This document shows, one piece after another, positions 729 through 60,776 of a stretch of 64,000 nt of DNA. Source of the stretch: Aselliscus stoliczkanus (taxonomy: Eukaryota > Chordata > Mammalia > Chiroptera > Hipposideridae); contig CM066727.1 of NCBI GenBank assembly GCA_033961575.1, positions 122,438,434 through 122,502,433 on the forward strand, written 5' to 3'. Positions within the stretch are counted from its first letter, which is position 1. Each line of letters starts with the position of its first letter. The position numbers and the translations under genes are program-made. A model generated the notes under the pieces. The model did not search any database, was not told the DNA's origin, and saw only the letters and a program-made list of their open reading frames with translations.

Positions 729-740
729 TCTTATGTTCTT

Positions 741-1965
741 TTTTTTTTTTTTTAATTAGTTTCAGGTGTACAACACAATGCAATAGTTATACTCTTTACC
801 CCCCAAAGTGAAAACCCCCTCCCCCAGTTCGCCAACCCACTCCCCCCCATATCATACATATCCATCACAACTCCCCTGACTCCCCTCCACAGTATACTCC
901 ACATCCCATGACCATCCACATATTCAGTTGCAGTTGGCATACAATACTATACAACATCAGCTTCAGGTGTACAGTGCAGTGATCAAGCCTCGACTCCATG
1001 AAGTGGTCTCCTAACAAGACATGTGACTATCTGACACGCCACAAAATTTTTACATTATTATATTCCCCGAACTGTGTTTCATATCCCTGTGGCAATATTG
1101 TAGTTGTCTATTTATGCTGTCTAATCCCTTCCCCTTCCCCCCCATCCCCACCCCCCTCCCAACTAGCAACCCTCAGTTTTTCCTCTACATCTACGAGTCT
1201 GTTTACTTTGATCGTTCACTCAGCTCTTCAGACTCCACACACAAGTGATATCACATGGTACCTGTCCTTCTCCGACTGACTTATTTCTCGCAACATAATA
1301 GTCTCTTCACAACATTATCAATTACATTCCCAGAACTGCCTCCATATCCCTGCGGGAACATTGTAGTCCCACATACACTGTCCAAAACCTTCCCCCTCTC
1401 CCTCTTCCCCCTCCCTCCCAGCCAGCAACCATCAGTTTTTCCTTTATATCTGCTTGATATGACTTCAATCTTCTTAAATTGTCTCTCTGGGTTAGCTTGT
1501 TTACCCCTTTCTTTTGTTTAAAAAAGCTCTTTTAACATTTCTTGCAATGCTGGCTTGGTGGTAATGAATTCCTTAAGCTTATTCTTTTCTGAGAAGCTCT
1601 TTATTTCTCCTTCAATTTTAAGTGATAGCCATGCTGGGTAGAGTAATCTTGGTTGTAGGCCTTTATTTTGTGTCACTTTGAATATCTCCTGCCACTCCCT
1701 TCTGGCCTGCAGAGTTTCTGTAGACAAGTCAGCTGTTAGTCTAACAGGAGTTCCTTTGTATGTAACCTGCTGTCTTTCTCTTGCAGCCTCTAGGATTCTG
1801 TCTCTGTCTTTTGCCATTTTAACTATGATGTGTCTTGGTGTGGACCTGTTTGGGTTCAGCTTGTTTGGAACCCTCTGCACTTCCTGGGCATGTATGTTGA
1901 TTTCCTTCACCAGGGTAGGGAAGTTTTCAGTCATTATTTTTTCAAATACGTTTTCAACCCCTTGC
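741..1965 (-). mobile_element. ORF1-only (HAL1-like) L1 part of the U6 chimera
   Basis: The 3' end (741 to about 1250 on the plus strand) matches the 3' UTR and last ORF2 codons of the L1 at 59423-60766, including the terminal GTACACCTGAAACTAATT. Upstream in element order, about 1255-1517, lies a second 3' UTR-like segment, and then the C-terminal part of ORF1. ORF2 is absent apart from its tail. HAL1 elements (ORF1 plus 3' UTR, no ORF2) have this design, but an internally deleted L1 would look the same. Confidence 0.8.
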
Positions 1966-2000
1966 AAAAATATGGAACGCTTCACGAATTTGTGTGTCAT
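1518..2000 (-). CDS. Open frame: U6-derived start fused to L1 ORF1p C-terminal half
   Basis: This is a 160-codon open frame. Its ATG and first 11 codons or so come from the U6 sequence; the rest is the L1 ORF1 RNA-binding protein from the RRM into the C-terminal domain. Family landmarks are visible, such as FEKIMTENFP, AQEVQRVPNK, PRHIIVKM and TLQARREWQEIFKV, and the frame ends in a normal ORF1-like C terminus. ORF1p normally forms a trimeric RNA chaperone; the coiled coil needed for that is missing here. U6 relies on promoter elements upstream of its transcript, which do not travel with a retrocopy, so I do not expect expression. It is best read as a fossil frame kept open by youth. Confidence 0.75.
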   Translation of the reverse strand: MTHKFVKRSIFLQGVENVFEKIMTENFPTLVKEINIHAQEVQRVPNKLNPNRSTPRHIIVKMAKDRDRILEAARERQQVTYKGTPVRLTADLSTETLQARREWQEIFKVTQNKGLQPRLLYPAWLSLKIEGEIKSFSEKNKLKEFITTKPALQEMLKELF

Positions 2001-2015
2001 CCTTGCGCAGGGGCC

Positions 2016-2065
<50 letters not shown>

Positions 2066-2072
2066 TGAGCAC
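1966..2072 (-). pseudogene. RNU6: Full-length U6 snRNA retro-copy
   Basis: The minus strand carries all 107 positions of U6, from GTGCT at 2072 to the five terminal T residues at 1966-1970. I see only two differences from the human U6 sequence known to me. Both are at CpG sites (near 2066 and 1998), as expected from methylated-CpG decay. The ACAGAGA region that pairs with the 5' splice site is intact. It lies inside a retroinsertion and lacks the upstream U6 promoter by origin, so it is called a pseudogene. Confidence 0.95.
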
Positions 2073-2084
2073 TCTTATGTTCTT

Positions 2085-3230: not shown

Positions 3231-3737
3231 GCCATAAAGACCTGATCAGTATTTCTAGTTTAAAAGAAAAAAGAAAGGACAAATATTGAGGACCTCCAAT
3301 TCCAGTTTGGGAGCATATGGGGAAAGCGGCCCTAGAGTCAGTGCTTGTAATTGATTGTAGAGGCTACTTTAGGATTTTATACATTGTCTATTTCCACTTG
3401 CCAAGTACTCAAATCCTTGGCACATATCAGACTTTAGCAAGCACAAATCCTTAGCTTAGTATTAGCATCCTCATCAAAAAGAATTGTGTTTAAGACACAC
3501 TTGTTGCTTATTGGTTATCCAGAAGGTGTGCCATATGGTGTGCTTGTCATAGGTTGTTCAAGCCTAATTGTGTGGATAAAGCTTCCTGATATGAATAGTT
3601 ATTTCATCTATCATAGCTTTAAATCTATTTCATAATGCTAGAATGGCTTTACCTCCTTGGCAGGGCTCTGTTGTTACTTTACTTTTATTGCTCCCCCCAG
3701 ACCTCCCAGTCTTACTCTCTCACTAGTTTTCCTTTAT
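3231..3737. other. Intron sequence, nothing recognised
   Basis: No exon, RNA gene or confidently identifiable repeat was seen between the pentanucleotide repeat and the next SINE. Confidence 0.5.
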
Positions 3738-3740
3738 GTT

Positions 3741-4177
3741 TGTTCTTTTTTTTTTTTTTAAAGATTTTATTGGGGATTTGGGGGAGGGGAACAGTGCTGG
3801 GGAATCGGGGAAGGGGAACAGACAAGTTGTTGTCCTTTTGTTCCTCAGTCTAGTTGTGGAGGACATTGCTTCACTGGTCCATGTTGTTATCATCATTGCG
3901 TTCTTTCCGGCTGAGGCAGTCGCTCACCAGCCATTGAACGGCAACTCATGGAGGCTCATGAAAGTGCACGCCAACTGCCGGCAAGCCCTACTGCAGCCCA
4001 CACCATTGCCAGCGACTTGTGGCAGCCCAGCTCCATGTCGAGCTGTTGTTCACCATCTTAGCTGTAGAGGGTGCAGCATCACTGGCCCTCATGTGGGATC
4101 CAAACCAGGGCCCTGCTGCACAGAACTGGCGTCCCAGTCCAACTCTTAACCAATGCGGCACTGGGCCGGCCCTGTTC
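3741..4177 (-). mobile_element. tRNA-derived long SINE (Rhin-1-like), antisense
   Basis: It begins with a T run at 3746 and the reversed tail AAAGATTTTATTGGGG. The GGGGAACAG tail motif occurs twice, and the element ends with the reversed head GGGCCGGCCC at about 4163-4172. A weak TSD, TGTTC, lies at 3741-3745 and 4173-4177. It is similar in body to the copy at 34472-34913. Confidence 0.85.
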
Positions 4178-6675: not shown

Positions 6676-6840
6676 GTCAAAATGTGGTCCATGAATAGTT
6701 TGTTTGGGCATCACCTGGGAGCTTATTAGCAATGTAGATTCTCAGGTCTACCCCAGACTGAGTGAACCAAACTCCGCATTTTAATAAGAATCTGGCGATG
6801 TATTGTACATTAAAGTCTGGGGAGTGCTGACCTAAAGTTT
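6676..6840 (+). mobile_element. MER5A-type non-autonomous hAT element
   Basis: Landmarks of MER5A appear in order: ATCACCTGGGAGCTTATTAG, ATTCTCAGGTCTACCCCAG, a TTTTAATAAG stretch, and a terminal GTCTGGGGAGTGCTG-like end. It is an old DNA transposon derivative without coding capacity. Confidence 0.75.
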
Positions 6841-10650: not shown

Positions 10651-10757
10651 GTGTTTGCTTTGGAAGCACATATACTAAAGTTAAAATGATACAGCAAACA
10701 CCAGAGTGGCCTCCATGTGAGGAAAACATGAAATTTGTAAAGTATTCCATGTTTTTT
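10651..10757 (+). pseudogene. RNU6: Old U6 snRNA pseudogene fused to L1
   Basis: The whole of U6 can be aligned, from GTGTTTGCTTTGG to the terminal T run at 10752-10757. I count about 30 differences in 107 positions, including one deletion. The stretch AGCACATATACTAAA is unchanged. Many differences are C-to-T or G-to-A. The L1 ORF2 sequence begins directly after the T run in the same orientation. This is the same arrangement as the young unit at 729-2084, but much older. Confidence 0.85.
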
Positions 10758-12250
10758 GGAATTCCATGTTTGTAGATAAGGAGGCCCAATGTCGTAAAGA
10801 TGTTAGTTCTCCCCAAATAAATCTACAAATTCAATGCAATTCTATCTCAGTAAAATAAACATATCAGTAAAAATTTTCATCAAACCTAAAGAGTTGCTTC
10901 TAAAGCTTATATAGAAGAGCAAAGAGCCAAAAATAGCCAGGGCAATTTTGAAGAAATTTGAAGGTTGGGGACTCATTAACATTAAGTGTAATAGTGTTAT
11001 AAGGAAAGACGGAGAGTTTACCGCGAAGGGCCCATAAACACACCCACACAAATACAGATGGTGGGCATGTGGAAGGTCTGGCCTGGGAGCCCCACGAAGC
11101 TGGGTTAGTCACTACATGGACTTTTCAATAAATGTTTCCGGGACAACCAGCTATATGGAAAAAAATAAAATTGTGTTCTTTTAACCACAAACAAAATCAA
11201 CACCAGATGGGTTAAAGGCTTAAATGAGAAAAACAACATTTTAAAAGTTCTGAATGAAAACAGAAGACTATATTTATGCATTCTAGGTAGACAGGGATTG
11301 CTTAAACAAAATATGAAATGTGCAGATTATAAAGGAAAAGTTTAATAAATTTGACTATATGTAAAACAAGAACTTGTGTAAATAAAAGTGAAGACAAACC
11401 ATAGAGTAGGAGATGTATTACGAAGTAATGATATCCAGAATATATAAAGAAGTCTTAAGTATAAATTAGAAAAAAGAGAAGTAGACCAATTAAAAGTGGA
11501 CAAAGACTTAAATGGGTGACTTATAGAAGCATTATCAAAATACACGTAAAATATCCTCAAGCAATCAAGGAAATGCACAATGAAATTAAAACCATGAGAT
11601 ACCATTTCCTGCCCATAATTTTGTTAAAAATTTAAAATGTCTAACAATCAAGTATTGTTGATTTTGTAGAAAAATGGAAGAGTTTCTTCTATTCATAGAA
11701 GAATAAGTTGATTCTACCATTTTGTACAATATCTTGTAAAACTATGACTTAACTATTCCACGCCAGAGAAACTTTCATACATGTATATAGGAGACATTTC
11801 TAAGAATGCTTATCATAGCATTCAATACTAGCTAACAGTAGAAAGGATACATAAATTGTGGAATAGTCAATCAATGGAACACTATTTGGCAGTAAATGAA
11901 CTAGACTTACCTGCATCACCATGGACAAGTCTAAAAATGTTGATTAACAGAAAATACCAAAAGGATCTAATATAATACTATTTTATGTGACGTTCTAAAA
12001 CATGCAAAACCAATGCTATTGTTCAGGAATGTCTACATGTGTGATAAAACTAAAGGGACGTAGATTAGAATAATAGGCACCATATTCAAGATGGCAGTGT
12101 CATGTACGAGGGAAGGGTTGGGAGGTAGATTAGAAAAGGATACACTTTATATGTTAAGGTGGGGGAGAGGGTTGCTTTATTATTCTTTATACCTTTTCAT
12201 TGAATTTTTGAAAGTATAGTTGGAACTTAAATAAATCAGTTGTTATTAGA
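10758..12250 (+). mobile_element. Old 5'-truncated L1 (ORF2 3' part and 3' UTR), 3' partner of U6
   Basis: It opens with ATTCCATGTTTGTAGATAAG and continues through recognisable ORF2 segments: ATTCAATGCAATTCTATC, GAGCAAAGAGCCAAAAATAG, and ACCATGAGATACCATTTCC near 11592. A 3' UTR-like region ends about 12250. The reading frame is broken in many places. I could not find a convincing TSD, as expected at this age. Confidence 0.75.
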
Positions 12251-16058: not shown

Positions 16059-16538
16059 AAAAATAAAGAAGTTAGGGCCGGCCAAGTGGCGCATTGGTTA
16101 AGACCTGGCTTGGGACGCCAGCCATCGCGGTTCAGATCCCATATATGAGGGCCAGTGACACTGCCCTCTACAGCTAAGATGGTGAACAACAGCTCCACCT
16201 GGAGCTGGGCTGCTGTGAGTACCCCCAGGACAGCTTAGCTGCAGCCTCTGCTGCAGTGGGCTGCCATAGGCTACAGTGAGTGGCCGGCAGCCAGCGTGAG
16301 CTGCCAAGAGCCGCCATGAGTGGCTGTCCAGAGGCCGGCTACCGATCTGCCTCACCCGAGAAGAGCGCAATGATGATACCAACATGGGCTAATGAAGCAA
16401 CGTCCTCCACAACTAGACGGAAGAACAAAAGGACAGCAACTTGTCTGTTCTCCTTCCTCGGTTCCCCAGCACTGTTCCTCTCCCTCAATTCCCCAATAAA
16501 ATCTTTGAAAAAATAAATAAATAAAAATAAAGAAGTTA
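16059..16538 (+). mobile_element. Full-length long tRNA-derived SINE, sense
   Basis: The 16-bp TSD AAAAATAAAGAAGTTA is perfect at 16059-16074 and 16523-16538. The element (16075-16522) has a tRNA-like head with a B-box-like GGTTCAGATCC. The body is about 330 bases and contains GCTGCC/GTGAGT-rich repeats. The tail holds two GTTCC(T/C)-CCCCAATT-like motifs, AATAAA at 16495-16500 and TCTTT at 16502-16506. A polyadenylation signal directly followed by a Pol III terminator is the hallmark of T+ SINEs. This is the best sense-strand reference copy here. Confidence 0.95.
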
Positions 16539-17367: not shown

Positions 17368-17860
17368 GAAAGTAAAGCCTTTTTTTTTTTTTTTAAGATT
17401 TTATTGTGGGATTGGGGGAGGGGAACAGTGTTGGGAAACCGGGGAAGGGGAACAGACAAGTTGCTGTCCTTTTGTTCTTCAGTCTAGTTGTGAAGGACAC
17501 TGCTTCACTGGCCCATGTTGATATCATCATTGCGCTCTTCTTGGGTGAGGCAGATTGGTTGCCGGCTTCTGGATGGCCGTTCACAGTGTTTCTTGGCAGC
17601 TCACTCCTGCTGCCGGCCACTCACGCTGGCTGCCAGCCACTCACTGTAGCCTATGGCAGCCCACTGCAGCAGGGGCTGCAGCTACGCCGTCCTGGGGGAC
17701 ACACAGCAGCCCAGCTCCAGGTGGAACTGTTGTTCACCATCTTAGCTGTAGAGGGCAGTGTCACTGGCCCTCATACGTGGGATCCAAACCGGGGCCCCTG
17801 GCGTCCCAAGCCAGCTGTTAACCAACACGCCACTCAGCTGGCCCGAAAGAAAAGCCTTTT
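17368..17860 (-). mobile_element. Long tRNA-derived SINE, antisense
   Basis: The TSD GAAAGTAAAGCCTTTT lies at 17368-17383 and, with one change, at 17845-17860. The T run and reversed tail AAGATTTTATTG lead into the body, with GGGGAACAG twice, then the reversed head CAGCTGGCCC at about 17835-17844. Same subtype as 16059-16538. Confidence 0.93.
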
Positions 17861-34461: not shown

Positions 34462-34923
34462 CTTTCTATTTTTTCTTTTTTTTTTTTTTAAAGATTTTAT
34501 TGGGGAATTGGGGAAGGGGAACAGCGATGGGGATTCGGGGAGGGGAACAGACAAGTTGCTGTCCTTTTGTTCTTCAGTCTAGTTGTGGAGGACGTCGCTT
34601 CACTGGCCCATGTTGGTATCGCCATTGCGCTCTTCCTGGCTGAGGCAGTCGCTCACCGGTAATTGGATGGCCACTCACCACAGCTCACAGCAGCTCACGA
34701 AAGCTCACACCCGCAGCCAGCCAGCCCCACTGCAGCCTACGCCATCGCCGGCGACTCACTGCAGCCCAGCTCCAGGTCGAGATGTTGTTCATCATCTTAG
34801 CTATAGAGGGCGTAGCATCACTGGCCCTAATGTGGGATCTGAACCGGGGCCTTGCTGCTCAGAGCTGGTGTCCCAAGCCAACTCTTAACCAGCACACCAC
34901 TTGGCCAGCCCAACTTTCTATTT
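34462..34923 (-). mobile_element. Long tRNA-derived SINE, antisense, inside the old L1
   Basis: The TSD CTTTCTATTT is perfect at 34462-34471 and 34914-34923. The T run, reversed tail, two GGGGAACAG motifs and reversed head (TTGGCCAGCCC) are complete. It splits the ORF2 antisense text of the parent L1. Confidence 0.95.
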
Positions 34924-36576: not shown

Positions 36577-37010
36577 TTTTATAGAATTTTTTTTTCTTTA
36601 AAGATTTTATTGGGGAATTAGGGAGGGGAACAGATAAGTTGTTGTCCTTTTGTTCTTCAGTCTAGTTGCGGAGGACGTTGCTTCACTGGCCCATGTTGGT
36701 ATCGTCATTGCGCTTGGTCGCCGGCCTCTGGACGGCCGCTCACAACGGCTATTGGCAGCTCACGCTGGCTGCCAGCTGCTCACACTGGCTGCCGGCCACT
36801 CACTGTAGCCTATGGCAGCCCACTGCAGCAGGGGCTGCAGCCTACACCGTCGCTGGGGCTTGCACAGCCCAGCTCCAGGTGGAGCTGTTGTTAGCTGTGG
36901 AGGGCAGTGTCACTGGCCATCATGATGTGGGATCCAAACCGGAGCCCACTGGCATCCCAAAACGAACTGTTAACCAATGCGCCACTCGGCCAGCCCTTTT
37001 ATAGAATTTT
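36577..37010 (-). mobile_element. Long tRNA-derived SINE, antisense
   Basis: The TSD TTTTATAGAATTTT is perfect at 36577-36590 and 36997-37010. The element has one GGGGAACAG tail motif instead of the usual two, and the body includes a GCTGCC-rich section like the 16059 copy. Confidence 0.95.
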
Positions 37011-37693
37011 ATATCCTGCTTTTTAAAAAAAAATTCTTTTATTGTGAAATAAATATATTTTTAAATTAGTTTCAGTGTACAACACAGTGCAATAGTTATA
37101 CTTTTTATCCCTCAAAGTGACAACCCACCTCCTCCAAATTGCCACCCCATTCCCCCCCATATCATACATATCTATTAAAATTCCTTTGACTCCCTTCCAC
37201 AGCATACTCCACGTCCTGTGACTATCTATATATTCAATTACAGTTGGCATACAATATTATACAACATCAGCTTTAGGTGTACAGTGCAGTGATCAAGCCT
37301 CCACTCCATCCACGAAATGGTCTCCCCAACAAGACATGTGACCATCTGACAACCCACAAAATACTTACAACATTATTAGTTATATTCCCCGAACTGTCTT
37401 TCATATCCCTGTGGCAATATTGTAGTTACCTATTTTTGCTGTCTAATCCCTTCCCCTTCTCCCTCATTCCCAACCTCCTCCCAACTAGCAACCCTGTTTT
37501 TCCTCTATATCTATGAGACTGTTTCCTCGTTCATTCAGTTTTTCAGATTCCACGTATAAGTGAGATCATATGGTTTTGTCTTTCTCCTACTGACTTATTT
37601 CACTTAACATAATAGTCTCTAGGTCCATCCATATCTTTGCAAATGGTACGATTTCATTCTTCTTTATAGCGGAGTAATACTCCATTGTATAAA

Positions 37694-38158
37694 TGTACCA
37701 CAGTTTCTTTTTTCTTTTTTTATTGTGAAATAAACTTTTTTTTGTTTTAAATTAGCTTCAGATGTACAACACAGTGCAATAGTTATACTTTTTACCCCTC
37801 AAAGTGACAACCCTCCTCCCCCAATTCTCCACCCCACTCCTTCCTCCCATATCATACATATCTATTACAATTCCTTTGACTCCCTTCCACAGTATAATCC
37901 ACATCCCGTGACTATCTATATATTCAATTACAGTTGGCATACAATATTATACAACATCAGTTTCAGGTATACAGTGCAGTGATCAAGCCTCTACTCCATC
38001 CATGAAGTGGAATATATAGTGGTGTGATTTTTATTTTTATTTTTTTTGAGCGCAGTTTCACTAGCCCTCATATGTGGGACCCGAACCAGGGCCGCTGGCT
38101 TCCCAAGCCAGCGCTTAACCACTGTGCCACTCGGCTGGCCCCTGTACCACAGTTTCTT
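37694..38158 (-). mobile_element. SINE-L1 chimeric retroinsertion
   Basis: A perfect 16-bp TSD, TGTACCACAGTTTCTT, encloses the whole insert at 37694-37709 and 38143-38158. On the minus strand it reads: complete short SINE from its exact 5' end (38142) to an A-rich tail, about 18 bases of unknown origin (38011-38028), then a truncated L1 3' UTR (about 38010 to 37755) and A-rich end. The SINE has no TSD of its own. A single TSD pair around both parts means one insertion event, by template switch from L1 RNA to SINE RNA. A SINE landing exactly at the L1 5' junction is the alternative, but less likely. Confidence 0.8.
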
Positions 38159-50769: not shown

Positions 50770-51720
50770 AGAGAATTAGAAAAAAATCATTCACATATAA
50801 GAAATGGAATATTATTCAGCCATGAGAACGAAGGAAATTCTGCCATTCATGATGACATGGATGGACCTCAACATAAGTCAGACAGAGAAAGGCAAATATT
50901 GTATGACATCACTTATATGTGGTATCTAAAAAGGCTGATAGAAAAGGGAGTACATGAGTGGTTACTAGGGCCAGGGTGGGGGTGGAGGGAGAAATGGGGA
51001 GATGTGGGTCAAAGAGTACAAACTTCTAGTTATAAGTTCTGGGGATCTCATGTACAACATGGTAATGATAGTTAATAATACTGTATTATGTACTTGTAAG
51101 TTGCTCAGAGTGTAAAACTTAATTTTTTATTTTTTTTTAAGATTTTATTGGGGAACTGGGGGAGGGGAACAGCATTGCAGAATCAGGGAAGGGGAACAGA
51201 CAAGTTGCTGTCTTTTTGTTCTTCAGTCTAGTTGTGGAGGACTTTGCTTCACTGGCCCATGTTGTTATCATCATTGCGCTCTTCCTGGATGAGGCAGATG
51301 GGTCGCCGGCCACTGGATGGTCACTCACTGCGGCTATTGGCAGCTCACACCGGCTGCCGGCCACTCACTGTAGCCTATGGCAGCCCACTGCAGCAGGGGC
51401 TGCAGCCTACACCGTCGCCGGGGATCGCAGCTCAGCTCCAGGTGGAGCTGTTGTTAGCTGTAGAAGGCAGTGTCACTGGCCCTGTGGGATCCGAACCAGG
51501 GCCGCTGGCTTCCCAAGCCAGCTCTTAACCAATGCGCCATTCTGCCGGCCCTTAAATGTTTTTTTTGCCACAAAAAAGAAATGATAATTATGTGATGCAA
51601 ATGTTAGCTCAAGCTATGGTGGTAATCATTTTTCAATATACAAGCATATCAAATCAACACATTGTACATCTAAAACCTACACAATGTTATATGTCAATAA
51701 TATCTCAATAAAGCTGGAAA
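50770..51720 (+). mobile_element. 5'-truncated L1, sense, split by a SINE
   Basis: ORF2-tail text (AATGGAATATTATTCAGCCA, GACATGGATGGACCTCAACA) leads into an older-type 3' UTR (GTTACTAGGGCCAGGGTGGG, TACACAATGTTATATGTCAA) and ends with AATAAAGCTGG. The SINE lies at 51126-51551. The 3' UTR differs from that of the young L1 at 59423, so it is an older subfamily. Confidence 0.85.
51126..51551 (-). mobile_element. Long tRNA-derived SINE, antisense
   Basis: T run, reversed tail with two GGGGAACAG motifs, GCTGCC-rich body and reversed head TGCCGGCCC. The TSD is short and imperfect (CTTAA and neighbouring A/T bases on both sides), but removing the element restores L1 3' UTR text. Confidence 0.9.
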
Positions 51721-52283: not shown

Positions 52284-52522
52284 TCATATAATTTAGATTT
52301 TGAACACATAGCCCCCACAACACCTTTCAGAAATACCAAGTTATATCTTGCTGGAAGTGTATGAGAATCCAATTTGTATTTCCTCCCCCAAAACTCGGTC
52401 TTATCAGATTTGTTTTGCGTATAGTCCAACCAATATAATAACTTCGACTGTGATCTTGAACTCTTTCTTGGTTTTACTTTCAGGGTCTCTCCAGATTCTC
52501 CTGTCACCTTAATCACTTGTCA

Positions 52523-52524
<2 letters not shown>

Positions 52525-52568
<44 letters not shown>
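52525..52568. repeat. (AC)22 microsatellite
   Basis: An uninterrupted AC run of 44 bases. Confidence 0.97.
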
Positions 52569-52570
<2 letters not shown>

Positions 52571-54039
52571 CTTTCTTCCCTAATAATTGTAGGGATTCAA
52601 GAGAATGAAAATTGTTCCTCAAAAAAATATTGAACACTCTTGCTAGAGGAAATTTCCAGAATTTGAGAAGCCAGATTGTTAAAACTGAGAGAGCCTAATA
52701 GTTTGGATTAGGATGCGTGAATTAGACAAATGTAGAGACAAGCTATTATTTCCTAGCGGATATTTAGACTACTGTCATAAACTGTTGCTTTCCTGTCAAC
52801 TGGTTGTGCATTGCTGACTCCAGGGGGTGCCACTTACACAGACTACAATGAGAAGCTGCCCCCTGGATTTATGCAATGTGCCCCCCCCTCAGGAAGATCT
52901 GACTGAATTATACTTAATTCGGTTTTAAGGAATCGTTTCTAAGATATTTTCTTTCTCTGGCTCTGCTCTTGCCCCTTACCCTCTATTGAGCATTTGTCTA
53001 AGAAAAGCAGACTTCCTGTCGTGATAAGTCAAACTTTAAAAATTATCCTTTTAGACCCTCTCTCTGGTGGACAAAGAAAGGGATGCAAGCCATTTAGTCT
53101 AGTAAAATGAGCAGACCTGTCTGTTGAGTTTGTTAATAGAGCTCTAGAGGGGGAGTTTGGAAGGAAGGCAAACAGCTGATCTCTGAAACCCGTCTTTGGT
53201 GGGCCCACCAGCACCTGGTATACTCTCACGCAGTCTGGTCTCTCTTCAGACCCTGATGCCTTACCTGCTTCACATTTCCTCTGTCCCTCACCCCCAACAC
53301 TTCAGCCCCATGATGGGCCTTATGCATTTGAATCTAATTTTTTTCTCATTATTATAAGAGCTTTTCAAATAGTTTTTAGACCTGAGAATCCCTTTCTACC
53401 AAACTGGGAATACAACAAAATCTTACACAAAATGCTATCAAGTAAAACAGATGGAGGCAGAACTGCTCCAGCTGAAAAGGTCCTACCTCTCCCCTGATGG
53501 GGCTCTTCAGAACCCATAGGCCTCTGGGAGGTGGAATCTGAATACCTTGTTGGTCTGCTGGAACTCACACAAAGGCCCCCCTTTTCCTCCCATCCCTGCA
53601 GGACCGCTGTCAGAGACCTCTAGAGACCACGTGAGGCCTTTGCCTAAGGTGCAAACTTTGAGAAGGGAGCACCAAAAAGAAACCTCAGTAATCAAGATGA
53701 AGAGTGGTTTAATATAATATTTTAAACAATCAAAATTAATTGATTTTCCAGGATCAATTAATTAGAAAATCCAGGATGAACAAAATATGAATATGTTAAA
53801 TAAAGACAGGTCAACAATAGTGCCTTGCTGAGCCTTATTGGAGCCTGAGCCGAAGGAAAAATCAGTCCTACTGATACCTTCTGTCTCTTGATTACCAGGT
53901 CTTTGGTGTCCCTTTAAATGTTGAGATCCAAGGGAGTGCCTCACTCTCCTTGCCTGGCTCCCCTAGTCCCTTTTACATCCATTATTCTCCATTGTCCTAG
54001 AACTGAAGATTTCTCTATCTCTTATTCCCTCATAGATTA
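52569..54039. other. Intergenic sequence, nothing recognised
   Basis: No exon or confident repeat was seen. Confidence 0.45.
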
Positions 54040-59412: not shown

Positions 59413-60776
59413 GTTCACCATAGAAGTAAAAGAAAAAATGAACATATGGGATTATATCAGACTTAAAAGTTTTTTCACAACAAAGGAAACCATTAATAAA
59501 ACAAAAAGGAAGCCTACTGAATGGGAGAATATATTTGCCAACGATATATCTGATAAGGGGTTAATATCCAAAATTTATAAAACACTCATGAAACTCAACA
59601 CCAAAAAAACAAACAACCCAATTAAAAAATGGGCAGAAGATATGAAGAGACATTTCTCTAAAGAGGACATACAGATGGCCAACAGGCATATGAAAAAAAG
59701 TTCAACCTCACTGGTCATTAGGGAAATGCAAATAAAAACCACCATGAGATACCACCTCACTCCAGTCAGAATGGCTATCATCAACAAATCAACAAACAAC
59801 AAGTGCTGGCGGGGCTGTGGGGAAAAGGGGACCCTGCTGCACTGTTGGTGGGACTGCAGATTGGTGCAGCCACTATGGAAGTCAGTATGGAGGTATCTCA
59901 AAGAACTGGAAATAGAGCTACCGTTTGACCCAGCAATTCCACTCTTAGGTATATATCCTGAAAAAACCAAGACACTTATTCAAAAAAAGTTATACACCCC
60001 GATGTTCATAGCAGCACAATTTACAATAGCTAAGACTTGGAAACAACCAAAATGCCCGTCAGTAGATGACTGGATTAAGAAACTGTGGTATATTTATACA
60101 ATGGAGTATTACTCCGCTATAAAGAAGAATGAAATTGTGCCATTTGCAATGATATGGATGGACCTAGAGACTATAATGTTAAGTGAAATAAGTCAGTCAG
60201 AGAAGGACAAATACCATATGATCTCACTTATATGTGGAATATGAAAAACTGTATGAATGAGCAAAGTAAACAGAAACTGTCTCATAGATATAGAGGAAAA
60301 ATCAGGGTTGCTAATTTGGAGAGGAATGGGGATGAGGGAGAAAGGGAAGGGATTAGACAGCAAAAATAGGCAACTACAATATTGCTACTGGGATAGGAAA
60401 AACAGTTTGGGGAATATAATTAATAATGTTGTAAATATTCTGTGGAATGTCAGATGATCATAGGTCTTGTTAGGGAGACCATTTCATGGATGGAGTAGAG
60501 GTTTGATCACTGCACTGTATTACTAAAGTGGAGGTGGTATACCTACTGTAATTGAATATATATAGATAGTCACGGGATGTGGATTATACTGTGGAAGAGA
60601 GTCAGAGGAAGAGTAATAGATATATATGATATGGGGGGGTGTGGGGTGGTGTATTGGGGGTGGGAGGTTGTCACTTTGAGGGGTAAAATGTATAACTATT
60701 GCACTGTGTTGTACACCTGAAACTAATTAAAAATAAAATTAAATTAAATTAAAAAAAAAAAAAAAAGTTCACCATA
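59413..60776 (+). mobile_element. Young 5'-truncated L1 with TSDs
   Basis: The TSD GTTCACCATA is perfect at 59413-59422 and 60767-60776. The L1 runs from 59423 (ORF2 C-terminal region) through its stop at 60242-60244 and a complete 3' UTR to a poly(A) at about 60751-60766. Its 3' UTR has a G-rich stretch near 60637-60670 and ends GTACACCTGAAACTAATT. It is the best local reference for the L1 3' UTR in the other copies. Confidence 0.95.
59423..60244 (+). CDS. L1 ORF2p C-terminal segment, open frame
   Basis: This is the last 273 or so codons of L1 ORF2, with no stop or frameshift. The frame can be read further left to 59354, but those 23 codons are target-site DNA from before the insertion, so they are excluded. 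The C-terminal domain carries the cysteine-rich motif C-x3-C-x7-H-C-x3-C at 59804-59857. It includes landmarks such as [16 protein letters not shown] and IPLLGIYPE. The endonuclease and reverse transcriptase domains are missing, so no protein function is expected. Confidence 0.9.

What the first reader, a model, noticed from the sequence alone, without database searches (positions are those of the whole stretch)
729..2084. Young U6 snRNA-L1 chimera with exact ends and a perfect TSD
A complete 107-base U6 (two differences, both CpG decay) joins directly to an L1 internal point, with TSD TCTTATGTTCTT touching the U6 5' end on one side and the L1 poly(A) on the other. U6-L1 chimeras are established in primates and rodents as template-switch products. 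A clean and young one in a likely bat would extend this and show the source L1 was active recently.
Basis: partly seen in the sequence, partly recalled or inferred. Interest (0 to 1): 0.8.

Follow-up and report, generated by a model that had tools for sequence, protein, structure and literature searches.

The report
U6 RNA–L1 fusion insertion, ORF2-less
A copy of the U6 splicing RNA was pasted into the genome fused to a piece of an L1 jumping element, a well-known kind of accident already recorded in bats; the less usual point is that the L1 piece lacks nearly all of its enzyme gene.

Summary
A full-length 107-base U6 copy (2072–1966, minus) is joined without a gap, in the same orientation, to an L1 piece (1965–741). 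One 12-bp target-site duplication brackets both (729–740, 2073–2084). This is one retrotransposition event, most simply a template switch from L1 RNA to U6; RNA ligation is not excluded. U6/L1 chimeras are a known class. Doucet et al. 2015 list 10 repeat-associated U6 copies in the bat Myotis lucifugus, so this is a new member. Nearly all of ORF2 is missing, so the template looks like a half-L1 (HAL1-like) RNA that needed ORF2p in trans. Whether that is a family is untested: genome search did not complete. The U6 is young (0 changes at 93 non-CpG sites against a recalled reference); the L1 part is more diverged, probably from before insertion. A decayed full-length U6 at 10651–10756, with L1 ORF2-like matches from about 670 bp downstream, is a candidate ancient chimera.

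The parts
729..740 (+). target-site duplication copy next to the L1 poly(A)
   Evidence: exact 12-mer
741..753 (-). poly(A) tail of the L1 part (13 T on the + strand, plus 2 T shared with the duplication)
   Evidence: sequence
754..1306 (-). last codons of ORF2 and L1 3'UTR
   Evidence: 84% to 37058-37620 and 80% to 60166-60738; ORF2 end read from the 60-kb copy
1309..1451 (-). second, partial copy of the L1 3'UTR
   Evidence: 79% to the 37-kb copy, 73% to the 60-kb copy, 76% to 1057-1192
1448..1478 (-). 31 bp matching ORF2 endonuclease-region codons (from about residue 216); overlaps the next segment by 4 bp
   Evidence: 84% to 38429-38399, E 5.7e-4; the translation there aligns to ORF2p from residue 216/217, E near 1e-3
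1479..1517 (-). spacer after the ORF1 stop
1518..1965 (-). 3' part of L1 ORF1 (RRM-like and C-terminal domains), open to its stop at 1518-1520
1966..2072 (-). full-length U6 snRNA copy
   Evidence: Rfam RF00026, 117.3 bits
2073..2084 (+). target-site duplication copy next to the U6 5' end
   Evidence: exact 12-mer

Best explanation
One L1-type target-primed reverse transcription event. ORF2p, supplied in trans, nicked the target and copied the poly(A) end of an ORF2-less, HAL1-like L1 RNA as far as a point inside ORF1. It then switched to the 3' oligo-U end of a U6 snRNA and copied it to its 5' end. Second-strand repair left a 12-bp target-site duplication. Shown: the order, orientation, exact ends, single duplication and lack of nearly all of ORF2. 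Inferred: the trans supply of ORF2p, the template switch rather than prior RNA ligation, and that the ORF2-less arrangement existed in the source RNA.
For: U6 complete and in sense with L1, joined with no poly(A) or duplication between them. A single duplication brackets both parts. The same layout is the published norm: U6 typically full-length, 98.3% in sense, L1 frequently 5'-truncated. ORF1 reads open to its stop, followed by loss of nearly all of ORF2. HAL1 (ORF1 only) is a known, recurrent L1 derivative (passage). Low U6 change against a high L1-branch change (0 of 93 non-CpG U6 sites against 26 of 324 columns free of CG/TG/CA, Fisher P = 0.0024) is best read as source-lineage divergence before insertion.
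Against: The endonuclease site is poor (3 of 6), whereas 19 of 21 human U6/U6atac copies joined to repeats are reported with duplications and the consensus site. No second copy of the ORF1 piece is in the window (it finds only itself), so a HAL1-like family is unproven. The ORF1 piece is CpG-poor (1 CpG in 448 bp, O/E 0.05), which fits an older copy as well as a CpG-poor source, and the L1 3' end is the most diverged of three copies. No empty site was seen. Ligation gives the same structure.
Confidence: 0.6

Rival explanations
1. The U6 RNA was joined to an L1 RNA by an RNA ligase (RtcB) before reverse transcription, and the chimeric RNA was then inserted by ordinary TPRT. (Differs from the best explanation in one step only, so the odds overlap.)
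For: Named as one of two published routes for U6/L1 chimeras. The junction is blunt, with the full U6 3' end.
Against: Nothing specific here; the DNA product is the same. RtcB needs a particular end chemistry (recalled), which cannot be read from DNA.
Confidence: 0.3
2. Several template switches in one event: RT hopped from one L1 3'UTR to a second L1 RNA's 3'UTR, then to endonuclease codons and ORF1, then to U6.
For: Internal joints in the L1 part. The two 3'UTR segments are only 76% alike over the shared stretch, as if from two lineages.
Against: Needs at least three or four switches. HAL1-type elements explain the ORF2 loss without them.
Confidence: 0.15
3. An ordinary L1 truncated in ORF1 was inserted with U6, and ORF2 was deleted from the DNA later.
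For: Another L1 in the window (38450-38150) also seems to lack the sequence between the endonuclease region and the ORF2 end (read by eye).
Against: Would need at least two deletions plus a 3'UTR repeat inside an insertion whose U6 has no non-CpG change.
Confidence: 0.1
4. Sequential insertions: L1 first, U6 later at its 5' end.
For: The L1 part looks more diverged than the U6.
Against: No duplication or tail of its own is seen at the U6. The 12-bp duplication lies outside both parts.
Confidence: 0.03

Closest known systems
U6/LINE-1 chimeric insertions (Doucet et al. 2015, PMC4476161; Law and Burns 2026, PMC13174262)
   Same: Full-length U6, in sense, at the 5' end of a 5'-truncated L1, flanked by one target-site duplication.
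   Different: The L1 part here lacks nearly all of ORF2 and carries a partial second 3'UTR; the endonuclease site is a poor match.
HAL1 (half-L1), described in a passage of PMC5753468
   Same: ORF1 and an L1 3' end with ORF2 missing; non-autonomous.
   Different: Copy number and family status not tested; short ORF2 remnants and a repeated 3'UTR piece are present; the 5' part of ORF1 is absent.
Double template-jump retrosequences of Magnaporthe (PMC2104539, search listing only)
   Same: Directly fused copies of different transcripts in one insertion.
   Different: Fungal LINE, other RNAs; multiple jumps are only a rival here.

Membership tests
U6/L1 chimeric insertion | full-length U6 at the 5' end | tested here: met
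   Rfam match 1-105 of 105
U6/L1 chimeric insertion | U6 in sense with the L1 part and joined without a gap | tested here: met
U6/L1 chimeric insertion | one target-site duplication around both parts, poly(A) at the L1 end | tested here: met
U6/L1 chimeric insertion | L1 endonuclease motif TT/AAAA | tested here: inconclusive
   3 of 6 matches; 25.8% of window hexamers reach that
U6/L1 chimeric insertion | both parts absent together in relatives | not testable with these tools
   no related eukaryote genome was at hand; the genome search unanswered in all 12 tries
HAL1 (half-L1) | ORF1 present, ORF2 missing, L1 3' end | tested here: met
   only the 3' part of ORF1 is present, and scraps of ORF2 remain
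HAL1 (half-L1) | a family of copies sharing the ORF2-less arrangement | not tested
   ORF1 piece found once in the window; genome search did not complete

The most novel reading that the evidence does not exclude
The host carries a recently mobile, composite half-L1 family (ORF1, a scrap of endonuclease codons, a doubled 3'UTR) whose RNA, moved only in trans, is itself a template from which RT switches to U6. That would show U6 capture does not require the RT to be on its own (cis) L1 RNA, here for an L1-derived template.
Probability: 0.4. Interest if true: 0.45.

Novelty: new member of a known kind. Interest (0 to 1): 0.25.

Why it matters
As a U6/L1 chimera it is one more well-preserved case of a known process. 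If the ORF2-less partner is a real family, it would be a datable mark that half-L1 RNAs were being mobilised in this lineage and that capture of U6 works on half-L1 RNAs served in trans.

Tried and rejected
Sequential insertion was rejected because of the single outer duplication. Relatives of the ORF1 piece in viral contigs: 24 pattern matches, none confirmed. L1 part against phage records: no match. L1 divergence as a measure of insertion age was set aside: the insert has the longest branch of the three 3' ends at columns free of CG/TG/CA (26 of 324, against 13 and 16), which hardly fits post-insertion decay if U6 has 0 of 93. A 3' duplication for the old U6 at 10651 was sought and not found. 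Two peptide pieces from just downstream of that U6 found nothing in PDB. Splicing as the cause of the ORF2 loss was looked at by eye without a clear donor/acceptor pair. Papers not held: PMC2923044, Bao and Jurka 2010, and PMC1855177, Garcia-Perez 2007.

Full report
Observation. Rfam finds one U6 above its gathering score in the window, at 2072–1966 minus, with 117.3 bits over the whole model. The next base begins an L1 piece in the same orientation. The 12-mer TCTTATGTTCTT touches the U6 5' end (2073–2084) and the poly(A) end of the L1 piece (729–740) and occurs nowhere else exactly in the window. As a mere count this is weak: with up to one mismatch, 22 of 100 shuffles gave two matches. At two preset borders it is strong: 3 of 198,737 random pairs reached 12 or more.

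What the L1 part is. Read in sense, the first 448 bp are the 3' part of L1 ORF1: 148 whole codons open to the stop, with the RRM-like (PF02994) and C-terminal (PF17490) domains and the L1 ORF1 protein 2ldy as best PDB match (E 3.3e-46). An ordinary L1 would continue with about 4 kb of ORF2 (recalled). Here 39 bp of spacer follow, then 31 bp that match a stretch of another L1 in the window at 84% (E 5.7e-4); the translation of that stretch aligns to ORF2p from residue 216/217 (E near 1e-3). Then comes a partial 3'UTR of 143 bp (79% to the 37-kb copy), and then the last ORF2 codons with the 3'UTR (84% and 80% to the copies near 37 kb and 60 kb; the ORF2 end is read from the 60-kb copy). The L1 part is therefore an ORF2-less composite, like HAL1, which is described as an L1 derivative that encodes only ORF1p and arose independently several times in mammals (passage in PMC5753468).

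The ORF1 piece against relatives. Of 120 listed relatives I aligned 15. At 138 columns covered by 12 or more of them, the insert departs from a residue shared by at least 90% at 5. It also has a two-residue gap that the other sequences do not show (by eye). This is a well-kept reading frame, but relatives within the length filter reach only about 74% identity among the 120 listed, so it does not date the copy.

Age. U6 has 0 changes at 93 non-CpG sites (95% upper limit 3.2%), and 2 of 7 CpG changed, both against the recalled reference. At a recalled mammalian neutral rate near 2.2e-9 per site per year the limit is about 14 million years; this rate is not calibrated for bats. Results that point the other way: the insert's 3' end has the longest branch of three copies (26 of 324 columns free of CG/TG/CA, against 13 and 16), and the ORF1 piece is CpG-poor (1 CpG in 448 bp). 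The 3' end keeps 8 CpG, against 5 and 1 in the other two copies. Since U6 and L1 arrived together, most L1 change should predate the insertion and reflect a distinct source lineage (Fisher P = 0.0024). The comparison uses only two other copies, and the site filters for U6 and L1 are not identical.

Mechanism. A single outer duplication, a complete U6, sense orientation and a blunt junction are the published signature (PMC13174262, section on chimeric insertions read whole; PMC4476161, sections 6 and 9 read whole). Two routes give it: template switching during TPRT or prior RNA ligation (passages and sections of PMC13174262). I favour switching, but the sequence cannot decide. The odds given for the best explanation and its rivals overlap, because the ligation rival differs in one step only. 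The endonuclease site is poor (3 of 6), against the published human set in which 19 of 21 U6/U6atac copies have duplications and the consensus site. ORF2p had to come from another L1, since this template lacks ORF2 (inference). Passages of PMC10239488 report intact LINE ORFs in three of the bats studied (Myotis myotis, M. lucifugus, Rhinolophus ferrumequinum), although recent LINE and SINE accumulation is said to be reduced in bats.

Host. The tRNA-headed repeats look to me like those of horseshoe-type bats, from recall only.

Known or new. Bats are already in the published survey: 10 of 111 analysed U6 copies in Myotis lucifugus are repeat-associated, and 0 of 4 in Pteropus vampyrus. Law and Burns count 180 U6/L1 chimeras in human (figure legend). 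A search for papers with both HAL1 and U6 snRNA gave two; I read only HAL1 passages of one (PMC4859970), and the other is on pancreatic RNase A by its title. I found no described U6/HAL1 fusion that way; that search covers only the held open-access library.

A second case. A lower-threshold Rfam scan gave a decayed full-length U6 at 10651–10756 plus (41 bits, below the gathering score of 44). Three collinear, weak tblastn matches to the window's own L1 ORF2 end lie downstream on the same strand, at about 11428–11538, 11561–11617 and 11847–11945 (E 0.012, 0.012, 0.047; best of the upstream control E 0.15). The stretch of about 670 bp that directly follows this U6 looks L1-like to me from recall only: no tblastn match of weight fell there, two PDB searches with pieces of it found nothing, and no duplication was found. 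It is a candidate ancient U6/L1 chimera, not a shown one.

Not done. Genome search gave no answer in 12 tries, so the empty site and the copy number of the ORF2-less arrangement are open.

Noticed in passing
10651-10756 (+), with 11428-11945 (+): Decayed full-length U6 with weak same-strand L1 ORF2 matches starting about 670 bp downstream; the stretch between looks L1-like by recall only. Candidate ancient U6/L1 chimera.
   Followed up: partly
16060-16524, 17380-17847, 51123-51566, 3732-4172, 34462-34911, 2581-2960, 36609-36998: A repeat of about 380-470 bp, seven copies or part copies on both strands, about 69-84% alike in pairs (best 60 matches listed); the 16-kb copy has a tRNA-like SINE head by eye, though ARAGORN finds no tRNA.
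   Followed up: no
38450-38150 (-): An L1 copy that passes from endonuclease-region codons to near the ORF2 end, apparently by internal deletion (deletion judged by eye).
   Followed up: partly
37034-38141: Two L1 3' ends in tandem, with a short repeat related to the tRNA-headed SINEs (38028-38141) beside them.
   Followed up: no
6705-6799 (-) and 52456-52658 (-): Sub-threshold Rfam matches to mir-544 (42.1 bits, gathering 66.5) and SCARNA7 (30.6 bits, gathering 65).
   Followed up: no
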